Assembly (NCBI GenBank): GCA_963978895.1
Contig: OZ022238.1
Location: 2,497,917-2,561,916 of the forward strand
Source of the DNA: Erpobdella octoculata
Lineage: Eukaryota > Annelida > Clitellata > Hirudinida > Erpobdellidae
Direction of reading: 5' to 3'
Length of the DNA: 64,000 bases
In this document: positions 3,753 through 56,970 of the stretch, piece by piece
Layout of the letters: each line of letters begins with the position of its first letter
How positions within the stretch are numbered: position 1 is the first letter of the stretch
Translations under genes and position numbers: made by a program
The notes under the pieces: model-generated
What the model saw: only the letters and a program-made list of their open reading frames with translations
The model's database searches: none
What the model was told of the DNA's origin: nothing

Positions 3753-17695
<13,943 letters not shown>

Positions 17696-22300: not shown

Positions 22301-25300
22301 TTGAGCCGTCTAAACTTATTTAGAACAAGTGAAGCAAAAACAAAGTTTTTTAAAAACACACTTTTATATTTTTTTTCCTACATAAACAACAAACATATTA
22401 GCATAGACAATAAATAGTTTGACGAAAATATCACAAATAAATACTTCATTAAATTTTGTCCAATCGATCCGAAAATTTGATAGAACTCATTATTAATTAG
22501 TTCGGAGGTATGGTTAAATTTTGAAATCTCTAGCTCATCGGGAAGTTAGTTTAAAATCGATTGCAAAATTTTACGACAAACAGATAGACAGACAGAGAAG
22601 TCAAGTTCAGTAAAAGTGTGTAAAAAGAAGGTATCATTTTCATCTTTTTTGCTGGATCTGCCCGTGAAAGTCGAAATCTTTTTTGAGATATTTTTTGAAT
22701 TAGATTGTGAATTGAATCAGTTTGAAAAAGGCCCGAAATTCTTAAATATCTGCCAATTATCGGAACTATTGATGGTCGAGAGGTGAATTTAGTAATGATA
22801 AAGCCTCAGGATACAGAGACAAAAACTTTAAGATAAAAAGTACAATTTTTTTGAAAACTCTAAGGGGGCCCGCCCCCCTCCCCATAGATCCGCTAGTGTC
22901 CGTTATAATGTTTGCAAGATATTTAAATTCTTGGTGAAACAATCTTTAAAAAGGGCTGCTGCAGCAGTACTTTTCACTCAGCTATCTGCATACTTTCTCA
23001 CTTGTTTAGTCATTTTATTGTGGCAAGGGGCGGGCCAGCATAATATAGTTATCAAAACAACTAAAACAAGCCAGGTCGGGCCCAAGTCATCACTGTTCGA
23101 GTCTGCAGCGGTCCGAGTTGCACTTGGGTCAGGCCTGAACAAATTGGCCCGTGCAGGGCCCTAGTAGCAGTCTTCTATAGCACCTCTTCTAACCTTCAGA
23201 CGTTTGTGACGGTGACGGAGATTAAACCTCCGACCATCCTTTTTTATATCATCGGTCGTGCCACCAGCGTCCCTAGCAGGGAGTTATGCAGTTTAAATTA
23301 ACAGAAGGTTCTAACCCATATTTTGCAAATATGATAATTTATGGTCAGAAAAAAATAAGTTAAAACTGAATCAAACGAAACAGTTTTTATTGGCTTTCAG
23401 GTCAAACCGAGGGTCAAATAAGAAATCGAAAAAACGACGGACGCCGGATTTCTGCTATTGTTACATATGCGGCCAGCAGTACTCCACCTCATCGTTGCTT
23501 TTCCACGAGCGATACTGCCTCCAGAGGTGGATTGCAATCAATGACAAGAGACCGAGAAATTTCAAAAAACCCCTGCCGAAAAAACCCCCAGAGCTCACCG
23601 ATGCACCGAAGGGTATTCTGTCCAGGTTTGCGACGAATATGTTTTGAGAATTTTAACGGAACTATTAAAACAACTTTTAATGCTAAGTTTTTTTTCTTAT
23701 TTTGTGGTGAACTAGACAAAAGAACTGATACATTAGTCTGATTTTTAGAGTGACCAGTCCGTCTTTAAACCTCCGCCAGAAAAAAAACGCACTCATTGTG
23801 TTCATTGTAAAGGTAATAAGTTCATTGAGATTGAGGAGCTCCAAACTCAGTTCGTTTATATGGGACCTGCCACCTATGTATATACCTGAAGCCGGAATTT
23901 GGGGTGTCATTACGGCAAATCCATTGTGTGGGGCAAGACGTTTAGATAATCTCGAGGGGGCAAAGTTTTTTTAAAGACCCAAACATTACAAATATTTTCT
24001 AAAATAACTAATAACCGGGGGATATTCAGAAGTACTTTTTTTCAACAAAAAAATTTTTGACTGGTTTCGGGATTACATGAAGAACCGATCACAATATGTC
24101 TGCTACAACAATGTGTTATCACAATCTTTACCCATCAACTGTGGCGTACCACAGGGCTCTATATTGGGTCCACTCCTATTTATTATATATATCAATGACT
24201 TACCTTTAATTTCTAACCTGTTCAGTTTTTCTTTATTTGCTGATGACACTAGTCTGTTTGCTTCTGGTGACAATTTGAACATTTTATTTGACAGCGTTAA
24301 TAATGGTCTCATATGTATTTATGATTGGTTTTGTGCCAATAAGCTTTCTTTAAATGTAAAAAAAACCAACTATATCATATTTCATCCAAAGAGTAAATCT
24401 ATTATTACAAAGTCATGTCTCAGCATTTCTGGTGTTTCTATTACCCGTGTCACCTCATATAGATTTTTAGGTGTGTTTCTTGATCAACATTTAACATGGA
24501 CTGATCACATTAAGCATGTTAAATCTAAAGTTTCTAAGTATATTGGAATTATGTATAGATTACGTCGTTTTATAGACACAAAAACTTGTATTATGTTGTA
24601 TTATGCATTTGTCTTTCCCTATATTTCTTACTGCAATATTGTTTGGGCTTCTAATTACCCAACTCGTCTTCTTTCTTTACACATTTTGCTCAAACGACTC
24701 ATCCGTATTATTTTTTTTTTACATCCTCTTTCTTCTTGTAAGTCAAAATTTACTGAACATAAGCTTTTAAACATTTATCAAGTCAATCTGTTTCAAATTG
24801 GTTCTTTTATGTATAAATATTCTAATTCTACTCTACCTCAATCCTTTCATGATTTCTTCTTGAAGTCGTCCGATATTCATACCCATTTTTTGCGATCATC
24901 TAATCTTTTCCGTCCAGAATTTGCAAACACAAGACTAAAAACCTTTTCTATTAAATGTTTAGGTCCGCGTACATATTCAGTCATCCCTATTTCAATACAG
25001 TCCTCTGAGTCCTTTTCATTATTTAAATCTCGTCTTAAATCTCACTTATTAAAATTATAATATATTCTATCATCTCAGATTCGAACGTATATTGTATATT
25101 ATTAAATGTTAAATTTTGTTATTTTGTTCATCTTAGTAATTTATTTCAGTTATTTTACCATTCTAAATTTATTGTATTGTATGTACCTGTATTATTATTA
25201 TTCGTAAATGTTTCATCTGCACTGGTCATCCTCAAGCGAGATTCATCTCTTCGGATGTTCCTTTTGGGCACTACTCATTCATTTTTTGTTGCATGCTTTT

Positions 25301-26999: not shown

Positions 27000-29419
27000 T
27001 CACTTCATCGGGTTCCCGTCCGGATAAACCCCCTTGAAAGATCGGACCACTTCAGGGTCGATCAATTTAACTCCGTCCACCTGATTGCCGAGGGTGACCC
27101 AGTTGGGCTGGATGTTGTGGGGTCGACCGAAGAGTTCGATCTTTCTCGTTCCTGGCGACAGTCTCTCGATGATGCCGTAGATCTCGTCGGGCTTGTGACT
27201 CGTGGCTCGCACCTCGGACACGATGACGTCACAGTCCAGTCCCCGGTTGACTCCCTTGAGGTTCCCTTTCACTCCGACTAAGCAATGTTCCTGCCAGATC
27301 AGCAAAAATATTTCAGTCATAACCAGCCAAATATTCTAGCATACAAAACAAAACTTCACTAGAAGTTGTAGTAGTTTAAGATCAGTTATTATTATTTCCG
27401 AGAGATTTGGACTTAATGAAATTTCTTGCATACAAAAGCAATATAATGCCAGTGCACTGACCTTGCCGTGGTTGAGCCAATGTCCTGTTCTACCGGTTCT
27501 GATTATCCTCTGGAGCTGGTTCGTTTTAACCCAGATGAGCTCATCGACACGTTCATAACCCCAAAGTGTCAGGCATTCTCTGCCCAGTTCCATGGCTCTG
27601 CCAGTCACCCATAAGAATATGTAGCCATCGTCTTGTAGGAAAGGAATGTTCAGTTTTCTCATCTCGTCATCGGACATCGTGCCGTAGGGGAGTTCCATGT
27701 GAATGTCCCAAGGTGGATCGGCCATGACGACTGCGAACTTGCCTAGAACCGACATGTCGAAGTGTCGTAAGTCGCACTGGATCCACTGCGGCGGGAAAAG
27801 CGTGGTGGACGAGGGGTCGTCGAACTTCGCCGCCCCGCTTCCGCTCATGTCCGTCCAGATACGACTGGCGGCATTGACCGAGTAGACCTGCCTGGGCCCG
27901 TCCACCGTCGGTCCGTCGCCGCCGTCGCATTCTATCTGGTAGTGGACGTACTTGCAGGTATCCATGTGGAAGCAGGTGTTGAGAAACGAGCAGTCCCCCA
28001 GGGATTCGTCCGTGTGCTTGTGTATGATCTTCTTGAAGTGGAGCTTCTGGCACGGCTGGTTCGGATTGGACGATCGCTGGCACTCCTCCCTGGTTCCGTA
28101 GCTGCAGAACTCGCGCACCTGCCTGCCCCCCTGGGAGCGGAATCTCTCCGTCAGCAGGCGCTCCTTGGTCGTCGGCTTGCTGAGAAGCTGGAGAATGTCC
28201 TCGGTCAGTTTCTTGGTTTCTCTCTCCTTGGCTGATTGCGTGGACAGTAGGCTTTCGATGACCTGATCTGATTTCGAGGTGTCCGTCTAGAAAAAAAAAT
28301 TTTTTTAACTTGATTTTTTCTCAATTTAGTGGGCTTTGTTTAATTATTATCAAGATAATAAGACTCCCTAGATTAGTAAATTTCATAGATTTTCCAACTC
28401 CTGAGATATTATAATCAGACGACCTAGAATGTTACAGGTCATATTTTATTAATCATTGTAGATTTTTAGACTTCCGAACGATTAGAATTTCGAGATTATA
28501 GGACATTTTAGAATACTTCACCGAATTTTCTAGATCATTGGACTTCCAAGATTATTTTAACTCAAAAACTTAATTCCTCAGAATATTAGACAACTCGAAT
28601 TACTGTCATTGAACATAGAATTCATGGATTATTGAACAACATGGATTTTCAGACCAACCTTTTTAACCTGCTTGCCACTCTTCCCGTGTGGCTCATCTTT
28701 TTCATCCAGTTTTCTTTTCAAATTTTTTCTTGCCGCGTCGCTCGCCGAAGCCTCGCTACTCGAGCCGCCGAATTCCAACTCGTAGAGAGCCGTCAACTTC
28801 TTGTGGTCGACTGACTCGATGGTAGTGATCGAGGAATCGCGGGCGGAGCTTATGGTGATCAAACTCTGGACGGCATACTTCTGGATGAGGTTTTCGATAC
28901 TGGAAATCGAAGTTGCGTCTTCTGGAGTCTGCGAGAAATGCAACTGCATTTTAAATAGCAAGCTAAATATCTTATAAAAAAATTTAATCCAGCTAAGTTA
29001 TTTACCTTGTTTAATGTTTGATAGAGCGTCACAACATCAACAGGCAAATTAAGAGATATATCAGTCAATTGTGTTAATAGAATTTTTTCAATCTCACTCA
29101 AATCTTCTGGCTTGGAAACCAAGTCGTTTTTTTGCTTTGAAATAAATCCCGACGGAGGAAGCTCATCCTGAGCAGTTATCGATGGCGAAGGAGCTGCATT
29201 AGTTGCAAACCCTTTGTCGCTCGGTTTCGGGGAAGCATTTTGATTTGAGAAATCGACTATGGTAGCCGATGCTTCAGTAGAAGCGGCACAAGGTACTGAA
29301 ACAGAAAGTATTGCAGCGGAACTAAGTTCAGCGACTTGTTTCTTTCTCGCCGCAATCCTCTCTTTAAGGTTTATTTGTTTGTTTTTAATCGCCTGAATTT
29401 CATTCCATGTGTCAGACAT
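27000..29419 (-). CDS. METTL3: METTL3, catalytic subunit of the mRNA m6A methyltransferase
   Basis: Four exons on the minus strand, all phase 0: 29419-29006, 28928-28659, 28286-27462 and 27290-27000, giving 599 residues (human 580). It begins MSDTWNEIQ, the leader helix that binds WTAP in the human complex. The CCCH pair spans about 287-343 (EFCSY; then TCFHMDTCKYVHY). The catalytic DPPW is at about 418-421, with gate loop MELPYGT. The C-terminus retains GRPHN and LGNQ, which bind AdoMet. METTL3 with METTL14 writes N6-methyladenosine on nuclear RNA. Every active-site residue checked is conserved, so it should be the functional copy. A polyadenylation signal lies at 26946-26951 on this strand. 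Confidence 0.97.
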
Positions 29420-29849
29420 TTTTAATTTTTAAGTGCCTGTGTAACTGTTTAGCGTGGTGATTTGAAATTCATTAACTAATTAATTGCTAATAATTGTATT
29501 ATGCCAACCGCTCCGTTGAACAACTTAACTTGCTATAACTAGTATAACTAGTAGAATAACTATACTTCTTTCATTTTAGCAACAAACACAAACATGAAAC
29601 AACACGGTGTTTTTGTTTATTTTATTGAAATGTGAATAAAGTATTTCTAAAAATATAAAAAGTACTTTTTTTCTAAAAAAAATGAAATAAAATTTATTAT
29701 TGCATTGCAATGTTTATGGTTCTGTAACAAGCAAATTTTAAATTTTAAAAACTAGTAAAAGTTAAGAGCGAAATACACAACAACAATTTATGAATCAACT
29801 AGCAGGGTACCCGGCGTTACCCGGAGTTTTTAGAGATTTTTCTAATGTT

Positions 29850-30810
29850 TGTCTCTCTTGCTCCCGCTTTCCTTCCCGCTTGCTCTCGTGCTTACGGTCG
29901 CTTTCCCGTTACCGCTTGCTCTCTCGTTCCCGGTCGCTCTCCCGCATAGGCGCAACTGGACGGCCAAAAAAAGGGGGGGGGGGTTATGGGTCTGTAAAAT
30001 AGAACAAGAGCATGGACGACTCCCACTTTTCAAAAACATTTTGTCTATTATTTTTTGGTTTGTTTTATATAATAAAAATAATAATAATAATGTTAGTGTT
30101 TTTGTGTTTATTAAATTATTAACAAAACAAAATAATTAAGACCAAAAATATTGAATAAATAATTCAAGACCAACATGGTGCCTACAGACAGAAACTTTAC
30201 TAACAAGGCAGCAAAGTATCTGTAGTACAAATACTTTAATAACAAGGCAAAATTTTTGAACAATAAAACTTGTGAATTGTTGTGTATTTATTTTGTCTTG
30301 GAAAATAAAAAAAATGGCTAAAACAAACCCAAAAATAATAGGAAAAATGTTTTTGCGAAGTGTGAGTCGTGATTGCTCTTGTTCCTTTTTACAATGCAGA
30401 CACAATTCAGATTAGATGCAAATTTTGAACCATCTTAAATAATTAACATTAGAATTAAGGTTTTAATTTATATACCATTGGGGGGTTTCAACCCCCCAAC
30501 CCCCCCACCCTGGTTACGCTTATGCTCTCCCGCTCGCTTTCCCGATCCAGGACGCTTTCCCGCTCCTGGTCGCTTTCCCGCTCTCGCTTGCTTTTCCGCT
30601 CCTGGTCGCTTTCCCGCTCTCGCTTGCTTTCCCGTTCGCTTTCCCTTTCCCGATCGCTCGTTCGCTCTCAGATGCTTTTCCGTTCCCGCTTGCTTTCCCG
30701 TTCCCGCTCGTTCTACCGTTCCGCTCGCTCTCCCGTTCCGCTCGCTCTCCCGTTCCGCTCGCTCTCCCGTTCCGCTCGCTCTCCCGTTCCGCTCGCTTTC
30801 CCGCTCAATT
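29850..30810. repeat. gctctcccg-type minisatellite split in two
   Basis: Units of 12 to 17 bp based on cccgctcgctttcccgttc occupy 29850-29944 and 30525-30810. The 580 bp between them are a transposable element with an 8-bp duplication of the minisatellite itself. Confidence 0.8.
29945..30524. mobile_element. hAT-like foldback element inserted in a minisatellite
   Basis: The ends CATAGGCGCAACTGG and (reverse complement) CATAAGCGTAACCAGG are flanked by CTCTCCCG at 29937-29944 and 30525-30532. Inverted similarity continues inward (gaacaagagca near 30002; its complement near 30375), giving arms of about 100 bp. It is non-coding. Confidence 0.85.
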
Positions 30811-31830
30811 TTTATCACTATAATTGTCTCCCATTGACTTTCAAGGTTGTGTAAAAATTTCATTACGATCGGATGAATGGTGTAGCAACGCATAGAGAAC
30901 ATACATACTTACTTACAGTCATTTATAATTATCTCAAATTTAGACACAAAATTCAAAATAAAGTATTACAATATTGCATTGTTAGCGGAAATCCATGTGT
31001 TTGGAAATTTTCAAGTCAATTGGACTTGTAGAAGCGGTCGAAAAATCGATTACAAAACAGGGACCCGTCTCACTTTTTTTGGCCCACCCTGTATATATAG
31101 ATTACACTTCTATTAGCTTCACGCGGTGTTTGTTCATTTGTATGTGTAGTAAAAATATTGTAGGCAATTTTTCGCCACTCATTGATCTTACATTTTTACA
31201 CATAAACGTTCTTTTTAAGACAATACACAAATCCTGGGGCGTCATTTGGGACGGCAGAGGGACTATTGCCTCCTCCTCCTCAAATTTGTCAAAATAACGG
31301 GAATCGAAGTCAGATTTTACGGGTGTATTTTTGTATTAGCCCCTGAGCTGACAGTTAATAATACCAGCTTTCATGAAACATGATTGGCTGTTAGTATAGT
31401 ATAGTTGTTTATTTAGCCTAAGCTGCTCAGTAGACCTTGACAGCCTCTATGTATTACGATTCATCTCAGAATGCCAACTGTATAAAAGTATGAGGTAGAA
31501 GTTGGCTGCGCAGCTGGATCCCCGAACTATAGTGCAAAAAAAAGTTCGTGCATTGGGGTTGTGCTATAGATCGTTGGAAAGGTATTTAACAAAGAAATAT
31601 AATGGTGTAAAAATAAATTTAATATTGCAAAAAATAAAAAAGTTATAGGCGAAAAACCGTCGCCGTCCCTATGTAAATGTATGGAGACGATTGTTCATAC
31701 CCTGATCTATATTTTGCTTCATAACCTTTTTATTTGTTGGACTATTTTCCAAAAATTAGTTTCTATGTTTAGCTAATATATTTGTCTTTCTAATGCATTA
31801 AGTTAGAACCCCAATGCAGTCGAAAATTTT

Positions 31831-31920
31831 AATCTACATGGCTCCAAACGCAAGTGAAAAATCGTCCCTATGTAAATGTATGGAGACGATTTTTCACTTG
31901 CGTTTGGAGCCATGTAGATT
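31831..31920. repeat. 90-bp palindrome with perfect 35-bp arms
   Basis: 31831-31865 and 31886-31920 are exact reverse complements around a 20-base centre. The centre plus its edges (29 nt, cgtccctatg...gacgatt) also occurs at 31664-31692 as a direct copy without the arms. No ORF is present. Confidence 0.9.
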
Positions 31921-31989
31921 AATATTTTGTACGTTCTTGTGGCTATGGCGGTTGTTTAATCGTTCCTTGACCAGGAGGACTGGTTTACA

Positions 31990-32208
31990 ATGACATGATT
32001 TGGTGCTAGGTTAGCTGAGTTGGTAAAGGGTTAGCCTTGAATGTGAGAGCTTCACGGTTCGACTCCCACTCACTGCCTAGTAGCCCATGTCAACGGAAAA
32101 TTTAGCGGGTAAAATCGTTCTCTCCGTGGGGCATGTAAAAGAACAGCGCCTTTGAACAAAGCGGAAAAGGCGCTCAATAAATTAGCAAACATTTACATTT
32201 ACATTTAT
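31990..32208 (+). mobile_element. tRNA-derived SINE
   Basis: The head carries a textbook A-box (tagctgagttgg, 32012-32023) and B-box (ggttcgactcc, 32056-32066), the internal RNA polymerase III promoter. A unique body with gcggaaaaggcgctc follows, then a tttacatttacattta tail. Truncated relatives are at 55210-55325 (+) and 49267-49302 (-). Confidence 0.88.
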
Positions 32209-32626
32209 GATCAAAGGTTGCGTCTTGCCGTGAAAGTAATGTCAATCTGAAACTAAGTGTTTGATTTATGTATTATCACTTGAAAAAAAACAGTTTTTAA
32301 GGTTTTTAATAAGAAAAAATAACGATAGACGAAAGTAGTTGTTTTTCTATTATTTTGGTTTGTTGAAAAATGTATTATATACTTGTTTGCGTTCTGTTTC
32401 TACACAATTGGTCGCATTGTGGTTAGCTATTTATTCATTGGATTGCAATATAGTTCGAATTTTAGGTCGCGTTTTACCGGCTCGTAGATCGCAGTTCGCG
32501 TTTTATGGACATCCCTTATCCATATTTTATTATTATCTTATCTTTAATCTTTTCACTTGAAATAAGTTATTTTTAGTAACAAACACGTGCAGATTTCACG
32601 CTGCGAAGTAAAAAGAATATTCCATT

Positions 32627-34854
32627 TTATTTATAAAAATTCCAATAACTCTCTAGAACTTTCGACTCGACTATGTTCGTCCTTTCCATTTGATCGCCAA
32701 GGGTGGTCCAGTTGGGCCGGACGTTGTGGGGGCATCCGAATAGTTCAACTTTTCTCGTACCCGGAGATAGCCTTTCTATGATCCCGTAGATTTCATCGGG
32801 CTTGCGACCTGTTCCTAAAACTTCGGACACGATGACGTCACAGTCTAGACCGCGGTTAACCTTTGGACTGCCTTTGACCCCGACCAGACAGTGTTCCTTT
32901 AAAATAATGCAAATATGTTAGTTATTTTTAAAAATTTTCTCAGGTTAGAAATAAAACTTGAAAAACAATTTAGAATAATTCCCTTCCTCTCCCAGAAATG
33001 TAGTTATTTATTTAGCAGTGCATTATTGGCTGCTGGGCCAAAGTATTTACTATTTATCATATTCTGTAAAACGTCATAATGATCTATACATACCTTGCTA
33101 TGGTTGAGCCAGTGGCCAGTCCTGCCTGTTCTTATAAAACCCTGCAATTGATTCGTCTTTACCCAGATCAACTCGTCCACGTATCGGTAACCCCACAAGC
33201 TCAGACATTCCTTGCCGAGCTCCATCGTTCTTCCGGTCACCCAAAGGAATATGTAACCGTCGTCTTGAAGTACCGACACGTTGAGTTTCTTCATGTCGTC
33301 ATCGGTCACGGCGCCCGAGGTCTGTCCGGCGTGGCTGTCCCACGGAGGATCGGCCATGACTACGGAAAACTTCCCGAGGACGCCGATGTTGAAGCAGCGC
33401 AGATCGCATTGGATCCACTGCGGCGGATGTAAGACGTCGACGTCGGTAGAGTTTCTCGGGAAATCTGGGTCGTCAGTCTCCGAGTGTTCCAAGTCATAAT
33501 GAACGTGCTTGCAGGTGCTAGGGTTGAAGCAGTGCCTCAGGTAGTTGCAGTCGCCGTTTGTCGTGTCCGTGTGTCGTTTGATGATCTCTCTGAAGTGAAG
33601 TTTGCGACAGCTTTTAGAATAGTTGACCGCCTCGTTGCACTCTTCTCTGGTTATGTAAGAGCAGAACTCTCTGATTTTTGGTCTCTTTCGCGTGCCAGAA
33701 CTTTTTTTGTTAGATCTAACAAGATCATCTGATTCAGGCGTTATCTGACCGCGATAGTGAGCGCTCTTTTTGTGTAAACGATAGTCCGATTTTTCACCCT
33801 GAAACAATGTATAATAAATTAATTTTTAATACTAAAAAAAACTCAGGTAGACATTAAAAAGGCCTTAAATAAACTTATAACACCATGCCATCTACAATGT
33901 TTCTGATTTATAGGCGTGCACCTATAATATAACCTATAGAAAAGATTGATTACTTACCTTGGTACTTGATGAAACCGTATTCCTTGAGTCGTAATCAGTC
34001 TGCCGACAATTGTTTCGATCGTCGACATCTGAATCGAACCTACTCGAATGACGATGAAATCTCACCGATTCAGGATCTGCCGCAATAAGCCTCCTGTCCT
34101 CATGTCTACCGTCTTTTCTCTCTCTTTCTCGTAGTTCCGTCGGTGTCAGAGCGGCGTACCTGGAGTCTCTCCGGGTAATTGAACCGCAGCGGGAGGACGA
34201 ACGCGACGAGTAATCTCGTCCGTCGTAATTTTTATTTCTTTGAGTCACCTTGATTTCCTCTTTTTTCTTCTCTTCTTTGTCTCTTCTACTTTTCGTGCTG
34301 CACTTTTCATACTCTGAGCTTTCACCGCGTCCTACAGCTTTCAGGCATTCGCTCCGCGTTAGGGACATCTTCTTCATTTTAGCTGATCGACTTTTGTCAT
34401 CACGATTCTTTGGACGTCTGCTTTCTGGGTACGCATCACTATCGTAGCAAGCACTTGCTTCATTATCGCTCGTAGGTTTCGTCTCTTTTACTTTTCTTTC
34501 ACAATCATCTTTATCGTTCCGTTTGCGTTTTAAGCTAACCCGCGGTGATCTGTCTTTGTCGCGCACCCGACTTTCCTGTCTGTCGTAACCTCGAACTTCG
34601 ACCTTGCTACTCTTCTTTTCAGAGCTCGTAACTATATCAGCACGTTCCTTTTGAGATGGGACTGAGGTTTTTTTGGCTGATTTATCTTCTTCTATAGACA
34701 TCTTCTTCTGGGGAACGCCAGATTTTTTCAGATTCTTAGCAGAAGAAGGTTCACATTTCTCTTCGCGGTAATACTTTCTAGTTTCGTTTTCGTTGTCTTC
34801 TAAATAATTTGTCGCCATTTTTCTTCGCACATGATGACTTCTGCTGGCAGACAT
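32627..34854 (-). CDS. Divergent METTL3 paralogue with a charged N-terminus
   Basis: Three exons on the minus strand: 34854-33958, 33798-33094 and 32896-32627, giving 623 residues. Residues 1-299 are highly charged (Arg, Ser, Lys, Glu), with no METTL3 leader helix. From about 345 the protein follows METTL3: CCCH pair (EFCSY; CFNPSTCKHVHY), DPPW at about 449-452, and the NQLQGFIRTGRTGHWLNHSK block. The last intron (NHSK|EHCLVG) is at the same place and phase as in the neighbour. The gate loop reads DSHAGQTSGA instead of DIHMELPYGT, so human Tyr406 becomes Ser; Arg536 becomes Cys (32732-32734) and Asn549 becomes Asp (32693-32695). No stop or frameshift interrupts it, so it appears maintained, perhaps with altered or lost catalysis. 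The joining of the first exon rests on strong splice sites and phase only. Confidence 0.85.
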
Positions 34855-35054: not shown

Positions 35055-35203
<149 letters not shown>

Positions 35204-36468
35204 AAATATACCTTTTGAAACTTGTTATACATAAGTTTTCAAACAAGATAACAAATTAAATGAATTTTTTATATATTGTTTATGACTTGAAAAGAATTCT
35301 GTAACAAATTCAAGCCAGTTTGTAATTTAGAAAAAAAAGTAAGTAGTGACATAATATGTTGCATTATTAACTGTTTCATAATAACAATAAGACTAATAAG
35401 AGATTCGATTAGTAAACGATTAAAAAAAAAAGATCGCTTCATATCTCTCTCTCAATGTCGACTAGCTCGCAAACATAAAATCATCGTCAGACACAAATAA
35501 GTAGGTGACGCTATATCGTCTAGAAGCTCTCTGAACCTTTTCTCACTAGTGTCTTTTACGATTACGCCCAATAAGATTGTACATAAGAATGAACACTATA
35601 AGCCACGCCCTCGATAAGGGGCTGGCGAATGAAAAGACACGGCAGGTCGAAGACGATATACGAGACAGGTAAAATACTGGCACTGAAGAGGTAAACAGTT
35701 TCCACACGTCGAAACGGAAAAAATAAAATAAAATATTTTTGAATCGAGCGACGTTGCATATGATAAATTCTAATTGTTCGTAGAATATATTTCTTTGACA
35801 CACGAAAAACAGCTTTGCAAAAATTCAATAGATAAAAACGCATCGACTTTATGAAACATACGACACAGAAAACGAGATTCGTTCAAGTCTGCATACGATA
35901 TTTTTGATCAATCACTCAACCAGTCAATCAGAAGTAAAAAAAAAACACGGAGCAATCCGTGGGAGAGACTAGATTCGGTTTACGTGTAAAAGTGAAACAT
36001 AACATTAAAAAAAATGTAAATAAAAGAAGCGCGATCTTGCATACAGTCCGAGATATAGCAGAATAGCGGGGGTTTGCGATCTGATTATACGGGGAAAGAA
36101 AAGGGCCAGAATATGGTTAAGATTGGCAAGGGGCAGAGAAAATCAGAGAGGTAACTCTTAATTAGTCTAGAATGTAATAGGCAATAGAACGGAGATGAGT
36201 GGTTATGGGTTTGCACAAAAATAGAACAAGTGGAAAAAAATTGAAGTCTCAAAAAGTCTAATTGAAAACAGAAAATCTGCTTACGTTCATATTTCCGTAA
36301 TTTTATTTTTACATTTAACTCAATAAGTTTAAAAAAAGAAAGCTTTAGACAAAATCTAGAACAAAGGATCAGTCAGAAGATCAGTTTTAGTGACATTCTG
36401 AAAGAATAGGAATTGCTATGGAACAATAACAATTCTTTTATTGATGCAGCCCATATTAAAGTTACGAC
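35204..36468. other. Intergenic DNA with nothing recognised
   Basis: AT-rich single-copy-looking sequence. Short frames on the minus strand (35546-35843) show no known protein and no coding-like composition. Confidence 0.5.
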
Positions 36469-36715
36469 CCAGTGGCCCTCCAATGAGAGATGTTTCTTTC
36501 CAGATGCCCTCCAATAAGAGATGCTTCTCTCCAAAGGCCCTCCAATGAGAGATGTTTCTTTCCAGAGGCCCTCCAATCGCAGATCTTTCTCTCCAAAGGC
36601 CCTCCAATCAAAGATGTTTCTCTCTAGTGGTCCTCCAATCAGAGATGTTTCTCACCAGTGACGTTCCCATCAGAACATTTTTTCTCCAGTGGCTCCACAA
36701 TCAAAGATGTTTCTC
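36469..36715. repeat. About 37-bp minisatellite overlapping the end of the glycosyltransferase CDS
   Basis: About seven units of the form ccctccaatgagagatgttt plus ctctccagtgg. The last unit (tcaaagatgtttctc, 36701-36715) contains the stop codon and final codons of the gene at 36701-40964. Confidence 0.85.
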
Positions 36716-39700
36716 GGGCTGACCAACGTCAACAATAAAGTGCGTGTACAGAGGCATTTCCTCCGTGGCAACAAGCGTGTATCGGAGAGAGTTCAAACCG
36801 TCGATGTGGTACCTCCTCACTCCTGTGTACAATAACTTCAGTCTGGAAACAATAAACAATAAATTATTTGAATAAATGAGTGAGAGATAATCACGAGAAG
36901 ATATTATTGAAAAAAATTTGTTTTTCAAAGTGGTCCCACGGTCGAACAAGTTTCGGAGCTTATAATAACTTATACAAGTACTTTTGGTACTTTGAAAATA
37001 ATTAGTTATAAATATTAATAACAATAACACATCTACATCATTGATATAATCATGGTGTTCTAAACTTAAAACTTTCAATTTTCAATATTTTGAAATCTAA
37101 TCTTGAATCTGTTGCCCGCTTGTTTCATTCAGCGTGGGGGGCATGTAAGAGAACAGTGCCGTAGAGCTCTGTAGGAGTAGCTCTATAAAATAACCCCAGG
37201 GATTTATTGTGCTACAGACCATCAAGTTTCGTTATTCTAAATAAAGCCTTTTCTGGAGAGTCCAAATAATATAAGTTTCAGTAGTCCCTTATCAATTGGT
37301 AGTCTAAAATTTCAAAAAGTATTAGTCATCTCTCTCAGTGATAAACAGGTTTCATGTAAACAAGATAGCTAGCTACGTACAAGGTGGGTACATATACCAA
37401 CAAAGAGAATACTTTTTATTATCCCAACTCATTTTTAAATAACAAATAAAATGAATAAAAAAAATACAAATGGAGGACAACCTTTTGACCCAATCAGAAG
37501 GTTTTCTCTTGACGTGCTTGATCATCTTGTACCTGGCCACCACCTCTGACGGCCGCGTAATCCTCAGCCCGACAAACATTAGCCTGAAAGTTGCGATCGT
37601 AATTACGGATGAATGACATTGAAAAAAAAGGGCGATAGCAATAACGTCGCCATGACAGCAACATTATTGCTTAAGAGCATTACAATGTCTACAACTAGGC
37701 GAGTTGATAAGTCTATCAAAATAAATTCTCAAAATTTTACATTACAACACTAACCTATAAGTCATGTCCTGCAGATCAAAAACATTACAACACTAACCTA
37801 TAAGTCATGTCCTACAGATCAAAAACATTACAACACTAACCTATAAGTCATGTCCTACAGATAAAAAACATTACAACACTAACCTATAAGTCATGTCCTA
37901 CAGATCAAAAACATTACAACACTAACCTATAAGCCATGTCATCATCCTCAGCACCCCAACCCCAGTAAAGATTAGAATAGCCATTGACCATCTCAAAGTG
38001 CTCTCTTCTCATATTCAAGACTCCTCCAACTAGCTCCTTATAGGCCAGCCTGTATAGCCAATCAGATAATTTTTTCAGATTAACTAACTTTGAAATAACG
38101 CAACTAAACGATACATAAAAATATTAAAAAATATCATTTATATAGAACTAAACGACTATCTGTTTATGATGTCCTCAGAAGGTCAAGGTTATTGAGATCC
38201 TTCTAATCTCCCTTATCCACACAGAAGACTTGACAAATCCTTTAAATCTTGTGGAGATCCGGATAAAACACACACATACTTATCTCGAAACAGACAGTAT
38301 GACAAGATTCAACTATGATAGGTTTTTAATTTATTTGAAATTGAACTACAAACTACGCTCTCATCCTGGAGTGATCTTGCTTGATCGACACTTTCTATTA
38401 TATATATATATATATTACTTTTATGCAATTATCATCTTCTTTATTATTAGTATTATCATTATTTTTATAAATTTCGAGGAAAATTTATTGACATATTTCT
38501 ACTTTTAATTTGGTCTGCTGATGATCACAACAACTGCTGGAAAATTTTCCATATTTCAATGAGCTAAATAGAAGACACCCTCTGAAGGACATACTCCCTT
38601 CATTTGCATATAAAAAATTTTATAACTATAATATTAGATCTTATTTATTTTTTTATTGAATATTCTGAATTGTTAAATGATAAATTTACTCCACTCCCTC
38701 TGAGTCAATAAATGAGCATATCCTTAAAATATTTTTTAAGTATAGTCCCCCCATGGAGCTGACCCTGTCCTTCCCCTCCTACTCGACCCCTAGACACTGC
38801 CCCCTCTCCTTGGACATCATAAACGAACAGTCCTTCATAAAGAGTTATACTTGCACACCTGTAATTCATCTCGTCGATAGCGACGGACAGGTGTCTCGGC
38901 AGAGCGGGACAGGTGTAAAGGTTCCTGTCGTCCTCCGGTACCAGGTCGACGTCGTGGAAGACGAAACACTGAAAGTCGAAGCGCTTCGAAGCCTCCAGAA
39001 AGCCGGCGTTCATCAGCCGAGCTTTGTTGAAGACGAATCCGCCGGTCTGGTTTTTGGCGGTTGAGACGAATAATTGATCAATTGATTGATTGATAACGAA
39101 TTAATGAAGTGTCATTTACATCACATCATTACCGTATAATTCTTATATCGTTGCACATTGTCATTACCACGACTATCAATATCGGTGTCATTTATTTACA
39201 TTACATTAAACCATATGATTCTTATATCGTTGTACATTGTCATAACCACAACTATCAATATCGGTGTGATGCAATAATTACCTTCCCATTTTCAATACCA
39301 GTTCGAGGATACCTGATAACCCATGCTTCTTACTCTTACTCTCCCCCATTCTTGCCGTTAACCACTTACCTGTTCCACTACGAATATTCTATAATCCAGT
39401 TCCTGTCTTTGCAACATGGGATGAAGGTGAGAAAGAAGTGTAAGCAGATGTAATTTCCTATCCCTGTAAGTATCGTCATATTCGATATTAATAGAAATGA
39501 ATTGTGAAAACCTGCAAAAGGCTAAAAATCATTGACAGAGCTAGAGATCTATCAATTCAGGACTCAAAACATAAAAACCAGCCATCAAAAATAATAAAAA
39601 AGTTCTTATAGCCAGTGGCGTAGCGTAGGGGAATTGGGGGCGGGGTTAGCCCTGAGCAGAACTTTTGAGGGGGCGGCAAGTGTTTAGAAGCAGAAAAATT

Positions 39701-49369: not shown

Positions 49370-54390
<5,021 letters not shown>

Positions 54391-55519: not shown

Positions 55520-56802
55520 ATTCTCCGTCTTCCGGGTTGTCTGCTTTGTTATTTTTAGCTTTGAAAGTTTTTACTTTTTACACAACAAGCAGCGATAGCT
55601 TTTACAATCAAATTATTTATATCATAATACTAACGCAACGACATTATCATAATTTATTCTATTATTATCCTAATAATTCAAAATTCGTTTTTTTAGACCA
55701 CACGATCAAAGTTCTTTAAGCTATTTTTATATATAATACCGGGCACAGTTCTACAATGCCTAGCTCAGCTACGTGTTAAAATTATAGTAGGCCATTAGCA
55801 ATGACAATAAAGCTTTAATAAATTAGCATTTAGCTAGCGTAACTTTTTGCAGGCATACTTCAATGTGACAGCTAAGCCATCTCTCTTCCTTATTGCATAC
55901 AGCTCTGTGTAACTTACTGAATTGCAAAGAGAACTCTTGACTACGACAATATACCTGTTGTTATCAGGGCTGAACAGTCTTTGTTAATTATTTTTGTCTT
56001 TGGCTAATTTTATATTTAAATTTAAATAAAAAGTTCAACTATGTTAGGAACTGATGTGGATAACAGATCAATGGATTTCGTCTAAAGAAAATCCACAGGT
56101 ATTATACTAACTACCACCACCGTTATTTGTTAAATATTTTTTTAAATATGAAATTTAAAAAAAATAAAATAAAATTGATGGAGACCAGACAGCCATCTAA
56201 ACCTTTAAGGTTTTTCAAATGAAATAACACAAGTCTAGGTAGGTAAGTCTTGCTTGAAATTTCGTAGAGAAGGCCAAGGAAATTCAGTGGTAATATAACT
56301 TTTCTATTTCATCCCACAGATCCCGCAGCGGCGTCCAAACGATAAAACCTGAAATCCTCTTTCACTATAATCGTATTTATCAAAATCTTTTTTTTAAACA
56401 CGCTTCTACTTAATAGCTCCCAAATTTCCATACATTTATAATATGTAGCCATATATAAAGCCATCATTATTGATATTATTTGATAAATAGGTATAAATGA
56501 ACCATTCCAATAAAATCACATCATAAGAATAATATGTATGTATATATGGAGCCGTCATTGAAATATAGGTAGATATCAATGAGAACCATTTTACTCACAC
56601 AACTTCGGTATACATGCATTATTTCGTGGCCTAAAAGTCTGGTTGACTCACGTCACGTTGAAGATCGCCAAAATGAATTGAAATTGAACTGAATCATACA
56701 ACACCGACACTCTTTATTAGGCTTATTAAACGCTCTTATGAAAGTAAATGTCTATATGAGCTCCATGAGTACAAAAACGCTATTTAGGTTTATTTTGATT
56801 GA

Positions 56803-56970
56803 ACTCCGCCTTGCTTTTGCAAGCCAGTCCCAAGCCTGGAGAAAAGAGGAGGGAAAAGTTAAAAAGATCAAATTATGATCTACGACAGGAAGTACTTAGG
56901 TGCTTTCAGCATACAGCAATTACAGTATTAAAACACCTGGTGTAAAGGACTATAAACTATTACAAGAAAT
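56803..56970 (+). repeat. About 150-bp dispersed repeat, copy 3
   Basis: gaactccgccttgcttttgc, gccagtcccaagcctgg, hairpin agatcaaattatgatct, aggaagtacttagg, then taaaggactataaacta and an attacaagaa tail. Confidence 0.85.

What the first reader, a model, noticed from the sequence alone, without database searches (positions are those of the whole stretch)
27000..34854. Tandem METTL3 genes, one with a rebuilt N-terminus and an altered AdoMet pocket
Two METTL3-type genes lie on the same strand 3.2 kb apart and share the NH(G/S)K|EHCLVG intron. Seen: the canonical copy keeps MSDTW, MELPYGT, GRPHN and LGNQ. The other keeps the CCCH pair, DPPW and an open frame but reads AGQTSGA, GCPHN and LGDQ. Known: human Tyr406, Arg536 and Asn549, which these replace (Ser, Cys, Asp), contact AdoMet. 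The leader helix that binds WTAP is replaced by about 300 charged residues. Inference: a duplicated writer has become a non-catalytic RNA-binding regulator, a METTL14-like partner, or an enzyme with changed specificity.
Basis: partly seen in the sequence, partly recalled or inferred. Interest (0 to 1): 0.85.

Follow-up and report, generated by a model that had tools for sequence, protein, structure and literature searches.

The report
Worm's second, altered RNA-methylation enzyme
An annelid worm, probably a leech relative, carries an old spare copy of the enzyme that marks messenger RNA with m6A; the copy's catalytic pocket has been rebuilt and it has gained a new charged front end, and two main partners of the enzyme have spare copies in the same genome as well, so the worm may run a second, probably non-methylating, version of the complex.

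Summary
Two METTL3-type genes lie in tandem on the minus strand: canonical METTL3A (27000-29419) and divergent METTL3B (32627-34854), both open and with proper splice sites. A/B synonymous differences are saturated while 145 of 200 methyltransferase-domain residues are identical, so B is an old retained copy, not a decaying one. Against 197 METTL3 homologues, B changes 10 of 19 near-invariant positions in the two published active-site loops but 15 of 116 elsewhere in the domain. Changes include Y406S, S511G, H512R, R536C and N549D; published alanine mutants of Y406 and of N549/Q550 abolish activity. DPPW and the METTL14-facing region (5 of 45 changed) are kept. The WTAP-binding leader helix is replaced by a 299-residue charged exon. 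Best reading: METTL3B is a pseudo-methyltransferase that keeps the METTL3 side of the METTL3-METTL14 dimer, plausibly paired with METTL14B. Transcription, partners, activity and orthologues were not shown. My searches of open-licence papers found no report of such a set.

The parts
33958..34854 (-). METTL3B exon 1: 299 codons from the ATG, new charged N-terminus (45% K/R/D/E, 15 RS/SR dipeptides), in place of METTL3's leader helix and N-terminal part
   Evidence: open frame, donor AAG|GTAAGT; no Pfam match at E 0.001 in this part; no second copy in the window by tblastn
33094..33798 (-). METTL3B exon 2: zinc-finger pair and most of the methyltransferase domain, DPPW kept
33490..33675 (-). METTL3B CCCH zinc-finger pair (approximate bounds): zinc ligands kept, RNA-recognition surface changed (R301E, F316Y, N318R, T319H in human numbering)
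   Evidence: alignment to human METTL3; mutant data in PMC6418081
33310..33351 (-). METTL3B active-site loop 1, DPPWDSHAGQTSGA (human 395-408; canonical DPPWDIHMELPYGT)
   Evidence: 7 of 14 near-invariant columns changed
32627..32896 (-). METTL3B exon 3: end of the methyltransferase domain and stop codon (TAA overlaps an AATAAA)
32801..32818 (-). METTL3B active-site loop 2 (human 508-513; R508L, S511G, H512R, K513 kept)
   Evidence: 3 of 5 near-invariant columns changed
32732..32734 (-). R536C codon (AdoMet methionine contact lost)
   Evidence: contact from PMC5023411
32693..32695 (-). N549D codon (AdoMet ribose contact changed)
   Evidence: contact from PMC5023411
29006..29419 (-). METTL3A exon 1 with the leader helix MSDTWNEIQAIKNKQINLKERIAARKKQ
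28659..28928 (-). METTL3A exon 2
27462..28286 (-). METTL3A exon 3: zinc fingers and most of the methyltransferase domain
27000..27290 (-). METTL3A exon 4 with GRPHN and LGNQ

Best explanation
METTL3B is an old, functional paralogue of the m6A writer subunit METTL3 in an annelid. Shown: intact frame with good splice sites, saturated synonymous divergence with a conserved protein, changes concentrated in the two active-site loops, the METTL14-facing region kept, leader helix replaced by a charged N-terminus. Inferred: it no longer methylates GGACU-type RNA, keeps the METTL3 side of the METTL3-METTL14 heterodimer, pairs with a METTL14 copy (most simply the divergent tandem copy METTL14B found here), and works as an RNA-binding pseudo-writer. 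It would reach nuclear RNA through its own charged/RS-like tails and not through the leader helix-WTAP contact, and would compete with or steer the canonical writer.
For: Active-site loops as defined in PMC5023411: 10 of 19 near-invariant columns changed against 15 of 116 in the rest of the domain, Fisher p 2.6e-4; with the kept DPPW left out (399-408, 508-513) 10 of 15 against 15 of 120, p 1.4e-5. Region 430-480 (my approximation of the dimer region) 5 of 45; W475, L476, R468, H474, H478 kept. None of the 197 homologues has B's residue at Y406, R536 or N549. PMC5023411 (passages, sections 6 and 9): Y406A and N549A/Q550A give background activity, R536 binds the methionine part of AdoMet, Y406 bonds S511, W475 inserts into METTL14. 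PMC6418081 (passages): F316A under 10%, R301D about 10%, N318A under half; B has F316Y, R301E, N318R. PMC8865655 (passages): leader helix responsible for WTAP binding. A/B pS 0.767, pN 0.227 over 282 codons. METTL14A/B share exon sizes 54, 179, 139, 93, 117, pS 0.837, pN 0.26; METTL14B keeps EPPL, I134, RRCED and the inserted Phe and has 31 RS/SR dipeptides in the first 135 modelled residues against 2 in the first 60 of 14A. WTAP has two loci, each open over its modelled exons.
Against: DPPW, D377, K513, F534, H538 and Q550 are kept, which a long-dead active site need not do; N549D can still bond a ribose hydroxyl and H512R could stand in for R536C (my inferences), so AdoMet binding may survive. 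F316Y is a mild change, unlike the tested F316A. No orthologue of B was seen (best 120 of 2524 hits listed), so constraint rests on one A/B comparison. No RNA evidence. Pairing of METTL3B with METTL14B is inferred from co-occurrence and similar tails only. R465 of the RNA groove is lost. The loop test was run after the substitutions had been seen, and the 197 homologues are the best-scoring ones, which inflates conservation.
Confidence: 0.52

Rival explanations
1. METTL3B is an active methyltransferase with a changed acceptor (another base context, structured RNA, or DNA). AdoMet still binds through D377, K513, H538 and Q550 with R512 in place of R536, and the rebuilt loop takes a different substrate.
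For: DPPW kept; of the nine AdoMet contacts that are near-invariant columns, six are kept; the loop is thoroughly changed, which also fits re-shaping of the acceptor site; the zinc-finger RNA surface is changed as well.
Against: Y406 and S511, which cap the site, are Ser and Gly; Y406A gives background activity in human METTL3 (PMC5023411). The new loop DSHAGQTSGA has no aromatic cap.
Confidence: 0.2
2. METTL3B works alone or with other proteins as an RNA-binding or splicing factor; it does not pair with METTL14B, and the METTL14 and WTAP duplications are unrelated events.
For: Charged, RS-containing N-terminus; the WTAP loci lie on different contigs (C1, C2) and METTL14 on C7, so the duplications are separate events; VIRMA gave one locus.
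Against: The METTL14-facing region is a well kept part of the domain (5 of 45 changed, dimer loop 1 of 12), hard to explain without a METTL14-type partner.
Confidence: 0.17
3. METTL3B is a decaying duplicate (pseudogene in progress) or a gene-model artefact.
For: Fast protein evolution: 25 of 135 near-invariant methyltransferase columns changed against 1 of 135 in METTL3A; long branch in the trees; no expression data.
Against: Synonymous differences saturated (pS 0.74-0.77) while pN is 0.16-0.23; 623 codons open; good splice sites; changes clustered.
Confidence: 0.06
4. METTL3B takes METTL14's role as non-catalytic partner of METTL3A.
For: A dead active site next to a live METTL3 copy is the METTL14 arrangement.
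Against: METTL14 is present, twice; B keeps the METTL3-type interface loop and matches METTL3 far better than METTL14 (399 against 110 bits).
Confidence: 0.05

Closest known systems
METTL3 (MT-A70, PF05063; catalytic subunit of the m6A writer)
   Same: Two CCCH fingers, DPPW, MT-A70 domain, interface loop with W475/L476; 145 of 200 residues identical to METTL3A in the methyltransferase domain
   Different: Active-site loops 1 and 2 rebuilt, R536 and N549 replaced, zinc-finger RNA surface changed, leader helix and N-terminal region replaced by a charged exon
METTL14 / yeast Kar4 (non-catalytic partners)
   Same: A methyltransferase-like subunit whose active site is no longer the canonical one
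   Different: METTL3B is METTL3-like by sequence, keeps DPPW (METTL14 has EPPL) and the METTL3 side of the dimer, and has zinc fingers; as far as seen it occurs in one lineage, while METTL14 is widespread
MTA9 / MTA9-B type inactive MT-A70 paralogues of ciliate MTA1 complexes (recalled, no call)
   Same: Lineage-specific inactive MT-A70 paralogue within a methyltransferase complex
   Different: Ciliate DNA N6-adenine system; no direct comparison was made here
SR/RS-domain splicing proteins
   Same: RS/charged low-complexity N-termini in METTL3B and METTL14B
   Different: No RNA-recognition motif found; Pfam finds only MT-A70 in both

Membership tests
METTL3 (sequence family) | MT-A70 domain above the Pfam cut-off, best match METTL3 | tested here: met
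   PF05063 E 1.3e-51, 175.4 bits over cut-off 23.9; best PDB matches METTL3, 399 bits against 110 for METTL14
METTL3 (sequence family) | Tandem CCCH zinc fingers before the methyltransferase domain | tested here: met
   Cys and His ligands aligned in place
METTL3 (sequence family) | DPPW motif | tested here: met
METTL3 as active m6A writer | Active-site loop residues and AdoMet contacts (Y406, S511, R536, N549) | tested here: not met
   Y406S, S511G, R536C, N549D; 197 of 197 conserved in the homologues compared
METTL3 as active m6A writer | Leader helix that binds WTAP | tested here: not met
   no MSDTW-type start; exon 1 is unrelated charged sequence
METTL3 as active m6A writer | Methyltransferase activity with METTL14 | not testable with these tools
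   needs protein
METTL3-METTL14 dimer | Interface loop with W475 and L476 and a conserved interface region | tested here: met
   dimer loop 1 of 12 changed, region 430-480 (approximate) 5 of 45 changed; binding itself not testable
METTL14 | EPPL motif | tested here: not met
   METTL3B has DPPW
Pseudogene | Stops, frameshifts, constraint lost throughout | tested here: not met
   623 open codons; pN far below saturated pS; clustered changes
Second writer complex (METTL3B-METTL14B-second WTAP) | Physical association of the divergent copies | not testable with these tools
   only co-occurrence in one genome shown

The most novel reading that the evidence does not exclude
This animal has a second, parallel m6A-writer-like complex: METTL3B, METTL14B and a second WTAP, each an old diverged copy, the first two with new RS/charged tails, sharing a single VIRMA. 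It binds pre-mRNA without depositing m6A (or deposits a different mark) and so opposes or redirects the canonical writer. It would be an animal case in which the core of the writer has been duplicated and one copy turned into a non-writing complex.
Probability: 0.3. Interest if true: 0.85.

Novelty: new variant of a known kind. Interest (0 to 1): 0.62.

Why it matters
METTL3, METTL14 and WTAP are usually described as one core complex in animals (recalled). A genome with a conserved and a diverged copy of METTL3 and METTL14 and two WTAP loci is a natural experiment that separates RNA binding and complex assembly from catalysis. It would make methylation-independent roles of METTL3 and METTL14 directly testable, and it shows substitutions retained together at positions whose mutation kills or cripples the human enzyme.

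Tried and rejected
Insect origin (first impression) was dropped: METTL3A groups with the leech Helobdella (96/96; 83/93, not starred, in the trimmed tree), and the best full-length named hit is the annelid Ridgeia. The top hit, P0002 from the firefly Lamprigera, was rejected as an orthologue: it is a protein with two canonical domains (sequence). The top hit (P0199, 49% identity) was not used as evidence of orthology, though it stayed among the 120 METTL14 rows, as P0002 stayed among the 197 METTL3 rows. Dating the METTL3 duplication by tree failed: B is a very long branch, and A+B, A+B+Helobdella and B with the clitellate-like group are all not rejected (p-AU 0.433, 0.437, 0.358). By identity B is closest to Ylistrum (59% over 316 columns) in one tree and to METTL3A (65% over 281) in the other. 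METTL14A+B are one side of a branch with support 28/0 only. A fold of exon 2 alone had mean pLDDT 49.1, pTM 0.34 and says nothing; no fold search was run on it. Rfam: 0 matches in the window. A shared repeat as the cause of the duplications is neither shown nor excluded: a G+C-rich repeat in the METTL3A-METTL3B spacer (30681-30878) is 75% alike over 212 bases to one in the METTL14 spacer, but its frequency in the genome was not counted. The first scripts had wrong exon ends for exon 3 of METTL3B and exon 2 of METTL3A, corrected; the WTAP-A model was out of frame at one junction and was corrected. In one search the most upstream METTL14A exon was cut three bases short of its likely donor, which changes nothing used here. 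Start codons of METTL14B and of both WTAP genes were not found; those models begin at internal exons. Literature searches whose listings showed no relevant report: (open-licence PMC only; listings seen, papers not read except the passages named). YTH (PF04146), Hakai (PF18408) and fibrillarin (PF01269, as a single-copy control) could not be counted: the tool did not complete.
Full report
What is there. On the minus strand of the window two METTL3-type genes lie 3.2 kb apart, METTL3B upstream of METTL3A. METTL3A (27000-29419, four exons, 599 aa) is an ordinary METTL3. METTL3B (32627-34854, three exons, 623 aa) has a 299-codon first exon of charged sequence, then the zinc-finger pair and the methyltransferase domain. 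All modelled introns have GT..AG ends and the exons join in phase 0. The DNA similarity found between the two genes lies in the two domain-coding exons, 74% over 339 bases and 76% over 217. The simplest account is a tandem copy of the 3' half that took up a new first exon.

The organism. The genome held is unnamed, 386 Mb in 94 contigs. METTL3A groups with Helobdella (leech) at 96/96 in one tree and 83/93 in a trimmed tree. In one search the best full-length named hit is the annelid Ridgeia; mollusc hits follow, and many better hits are unnamed. I infer a leech-related annelid; the species is not known.

Age and constraint. Over the zinc fingers and methyltransferase domain A and B share 187 of 282 residues, with pS 0.767 (saturated) and pN 0.227; over the methyltransferase domain alone 145 of 200, pS 0.738, pN 0.162. 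A neutral copy this old would be expected to hold stops. No closer relative of B than ordinary METTL3 is among the best 120 of 2524 hits, so either the orthologues are not in that database or they rank below the list. The trees cannot date the split.

The active site. The 197 METTL3 homologues listed (best 120 of 2524 and of 2507 hits; the two-domain P0002 included) were aligned with A and B. Of 135 columns in human 369-570 that are at least 95% conserved, A departs at 1 and B at 25. In the active-site loops as PMC5023411 defines them (395-408 and 508-513) B departs at 10 of 19, in the rest at 15 of 116 (Fisher p 2.6e-4); with the kept DPPW left out, 10 of 15 against 15 of 120 (p 1.4e-5). In 430-480, my approximation of the METTL14-facing region, B departs at 5 of 45. 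The list is biased towards close hits, which inflates conservation, and the test was made after the changes had been seen. By PMC5023411 (passages and sections 6 and 9) Y406 caps the product and bonds S511, R536 and H512 lie at the methionine carboxylate, N549 and Q550 bind the ribose, W475 inserts into METTL14, and Y406A or N549A/Q550A drop activity to background. B has Y406S, S511G, H512R, R536C and N549D but keeps D377, DPPW, K513, F534, H538, Q550, W475 and L476. Upstream of the methyltransferase domain, mainly in the zinc fingers, B departs at 17 of 43 conserved columns and A at 0. B has R301E, F316Y and N318R, at positions where R301D, F316A and N318A cut activity to about 10%, under 10% and under half (PMC6418081, passages); F316Y is milder than the tested change. 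The zinc ligands are kept.

The partners. A search of the whole genome with MT-A70 gave METTL3A, METTL3B, two METTL14 genes in tandem on contig C7, and one further locus on C11 that I take for METTL4 without having checked it. METTL14A and METTL14B have the same exon sizes (54, 179, 139, 93, 117), 178 of 295 core residues identical, pS 0.837, pN 0.26. Against the 120 METTL14 homologues listed (of 1002) 14A departs at 9 and 14B at 48 of 174 conserved columns: for 14B 23 of 50 in the N-terminal part up to about human 163 and 25 of 124 after it. 14B keeps EPPL, I134, Y198, RRCED and the inserted Phe. It has an RS-rich N-terminus (31 RS/SR dipeptides in the first 135 modelled residues) where 14A has 2 in 60, and a Gln-rich C-terminus. 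WTAP also has two loci, C1:134411-134850 and C2:47568260-47568956 (one of the four matches holds a TAA, which lies where the match runs past the modelled exon into the intron). Both are open over the modelled exons, both match human WTAP in the PDB (1.6e-47 for 187 residues, 2e-42 for 214), and they share 51 of 85 core residues with pS 0.797, pN 0.271. The C2 copy carries a 208-residue charged and Ser-rich tail without RS dipeptides; human WTAP has a Ser-rich tail as well (recalled), so that tail is not by itself a novelty. VIRMA gave three exon matches in one place, C7:10219379-10223081, thus one locus (128 of 150 candidates scored). One VIRMA and one other MT-A70 locus speak against a whole-genome duplication, but wider controls could not be run.

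How it probably works. Shown: B is an intact, constrained gene model with a remade active site, a changed zinc-finger surface, a kept dimer face and a new charged N-terminus in place of the leader helix, which is held responsible for WTAP binding (PMC8865655, passages). Inferred: B does not write m6A at the usual motif; it dimerises with a METTL14, most simply the also diverged METTL14B; the pair binds RNA through the interface groove (R468, H474, H478 and the RR of RRCED kept; R465 lost) and reaches nuclear RNA through RS/charged tails. It would act as a competitor or guide for the canonical writer. The kept DPPW and part of the AdoMet site leave room for an enzyme of changed specificity.

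Known or new. METTL14 itself is the precedent for an inactive MT-A70 partner. My searches of open-licence papers (listings seen) showed no report of a METTL3 paralogue with a rebuilt active site in an animal, or of joint second copies of METTL3, METTL14 and WTAP. In the planarian paper PMC12661160 (passages) the table lists one METTL3, one METTL14 and one WTAP. The finding is a new variant of a known kind.

Noticed in passing
L009 4103-7902 and L010 917-4346 (genome contig C7, outside the window): METTL14 is tandemly duplicated; the divergent copy METTL14B has an RS-rich N-terminus and a poly-Gln C-terminus, and shares five exon sizes with METTL14A.
   Followed up: yes
L016 2968-4541 (contig C1) and L017 1372-5327 (contig C2): Two WTAP genes on different contigs, open over the modelled exons; the C2 copy has a 208-residue charged, Ser-rich tail.
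   Followed up: partly
window 24008-25060, + strand: Reverse transcriptase fragment (RVT_1, E 1.7e-12), about 2 kb beyond the 3' end of METTL3A.
   Followed up: no
window 30681-30878 and L009 about 8933-9143: A G+C-rich minisatellite-like repeat (GAGAGCGAGCGGAACGG-type units) lies in the spacers of both tandem pairs, 75% alike over 212 bases; whether it is common in the genome was not counted.
   Followed up: partly
L009 about 8625-8808; window about 4040-4181, 53249-53431, 56802-56969: A different dispersed repeat from the METTL14 spacer with 89-95% identical copies in the window, none of the listed ones in the METTL3 spacer.
   Followed up: no
window 35059-35201: Long (AT)n tract upstream of METTL3B; similar tracts near 51.9 kb and beside METTL14B in L009.
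   Followed up: no
window 37917-38123, - strand: Exon of a galactosyltransferase-type gene (Glyco_transf_7C, E 2.2e-20).
   Followed up: no
window 36373-36651, - strand: Short imperfect repeat in open frame (SLIGGPLER / WRAFGEK-like units), seen in the frame listing.
   Followed up: no
METTL14A in L010: METTL14A's C-terminal tail lacks the RGG repeats seen in Ridgeia and Potamilus and is Gln/Ala/Pro-rich.
   Followed up: no
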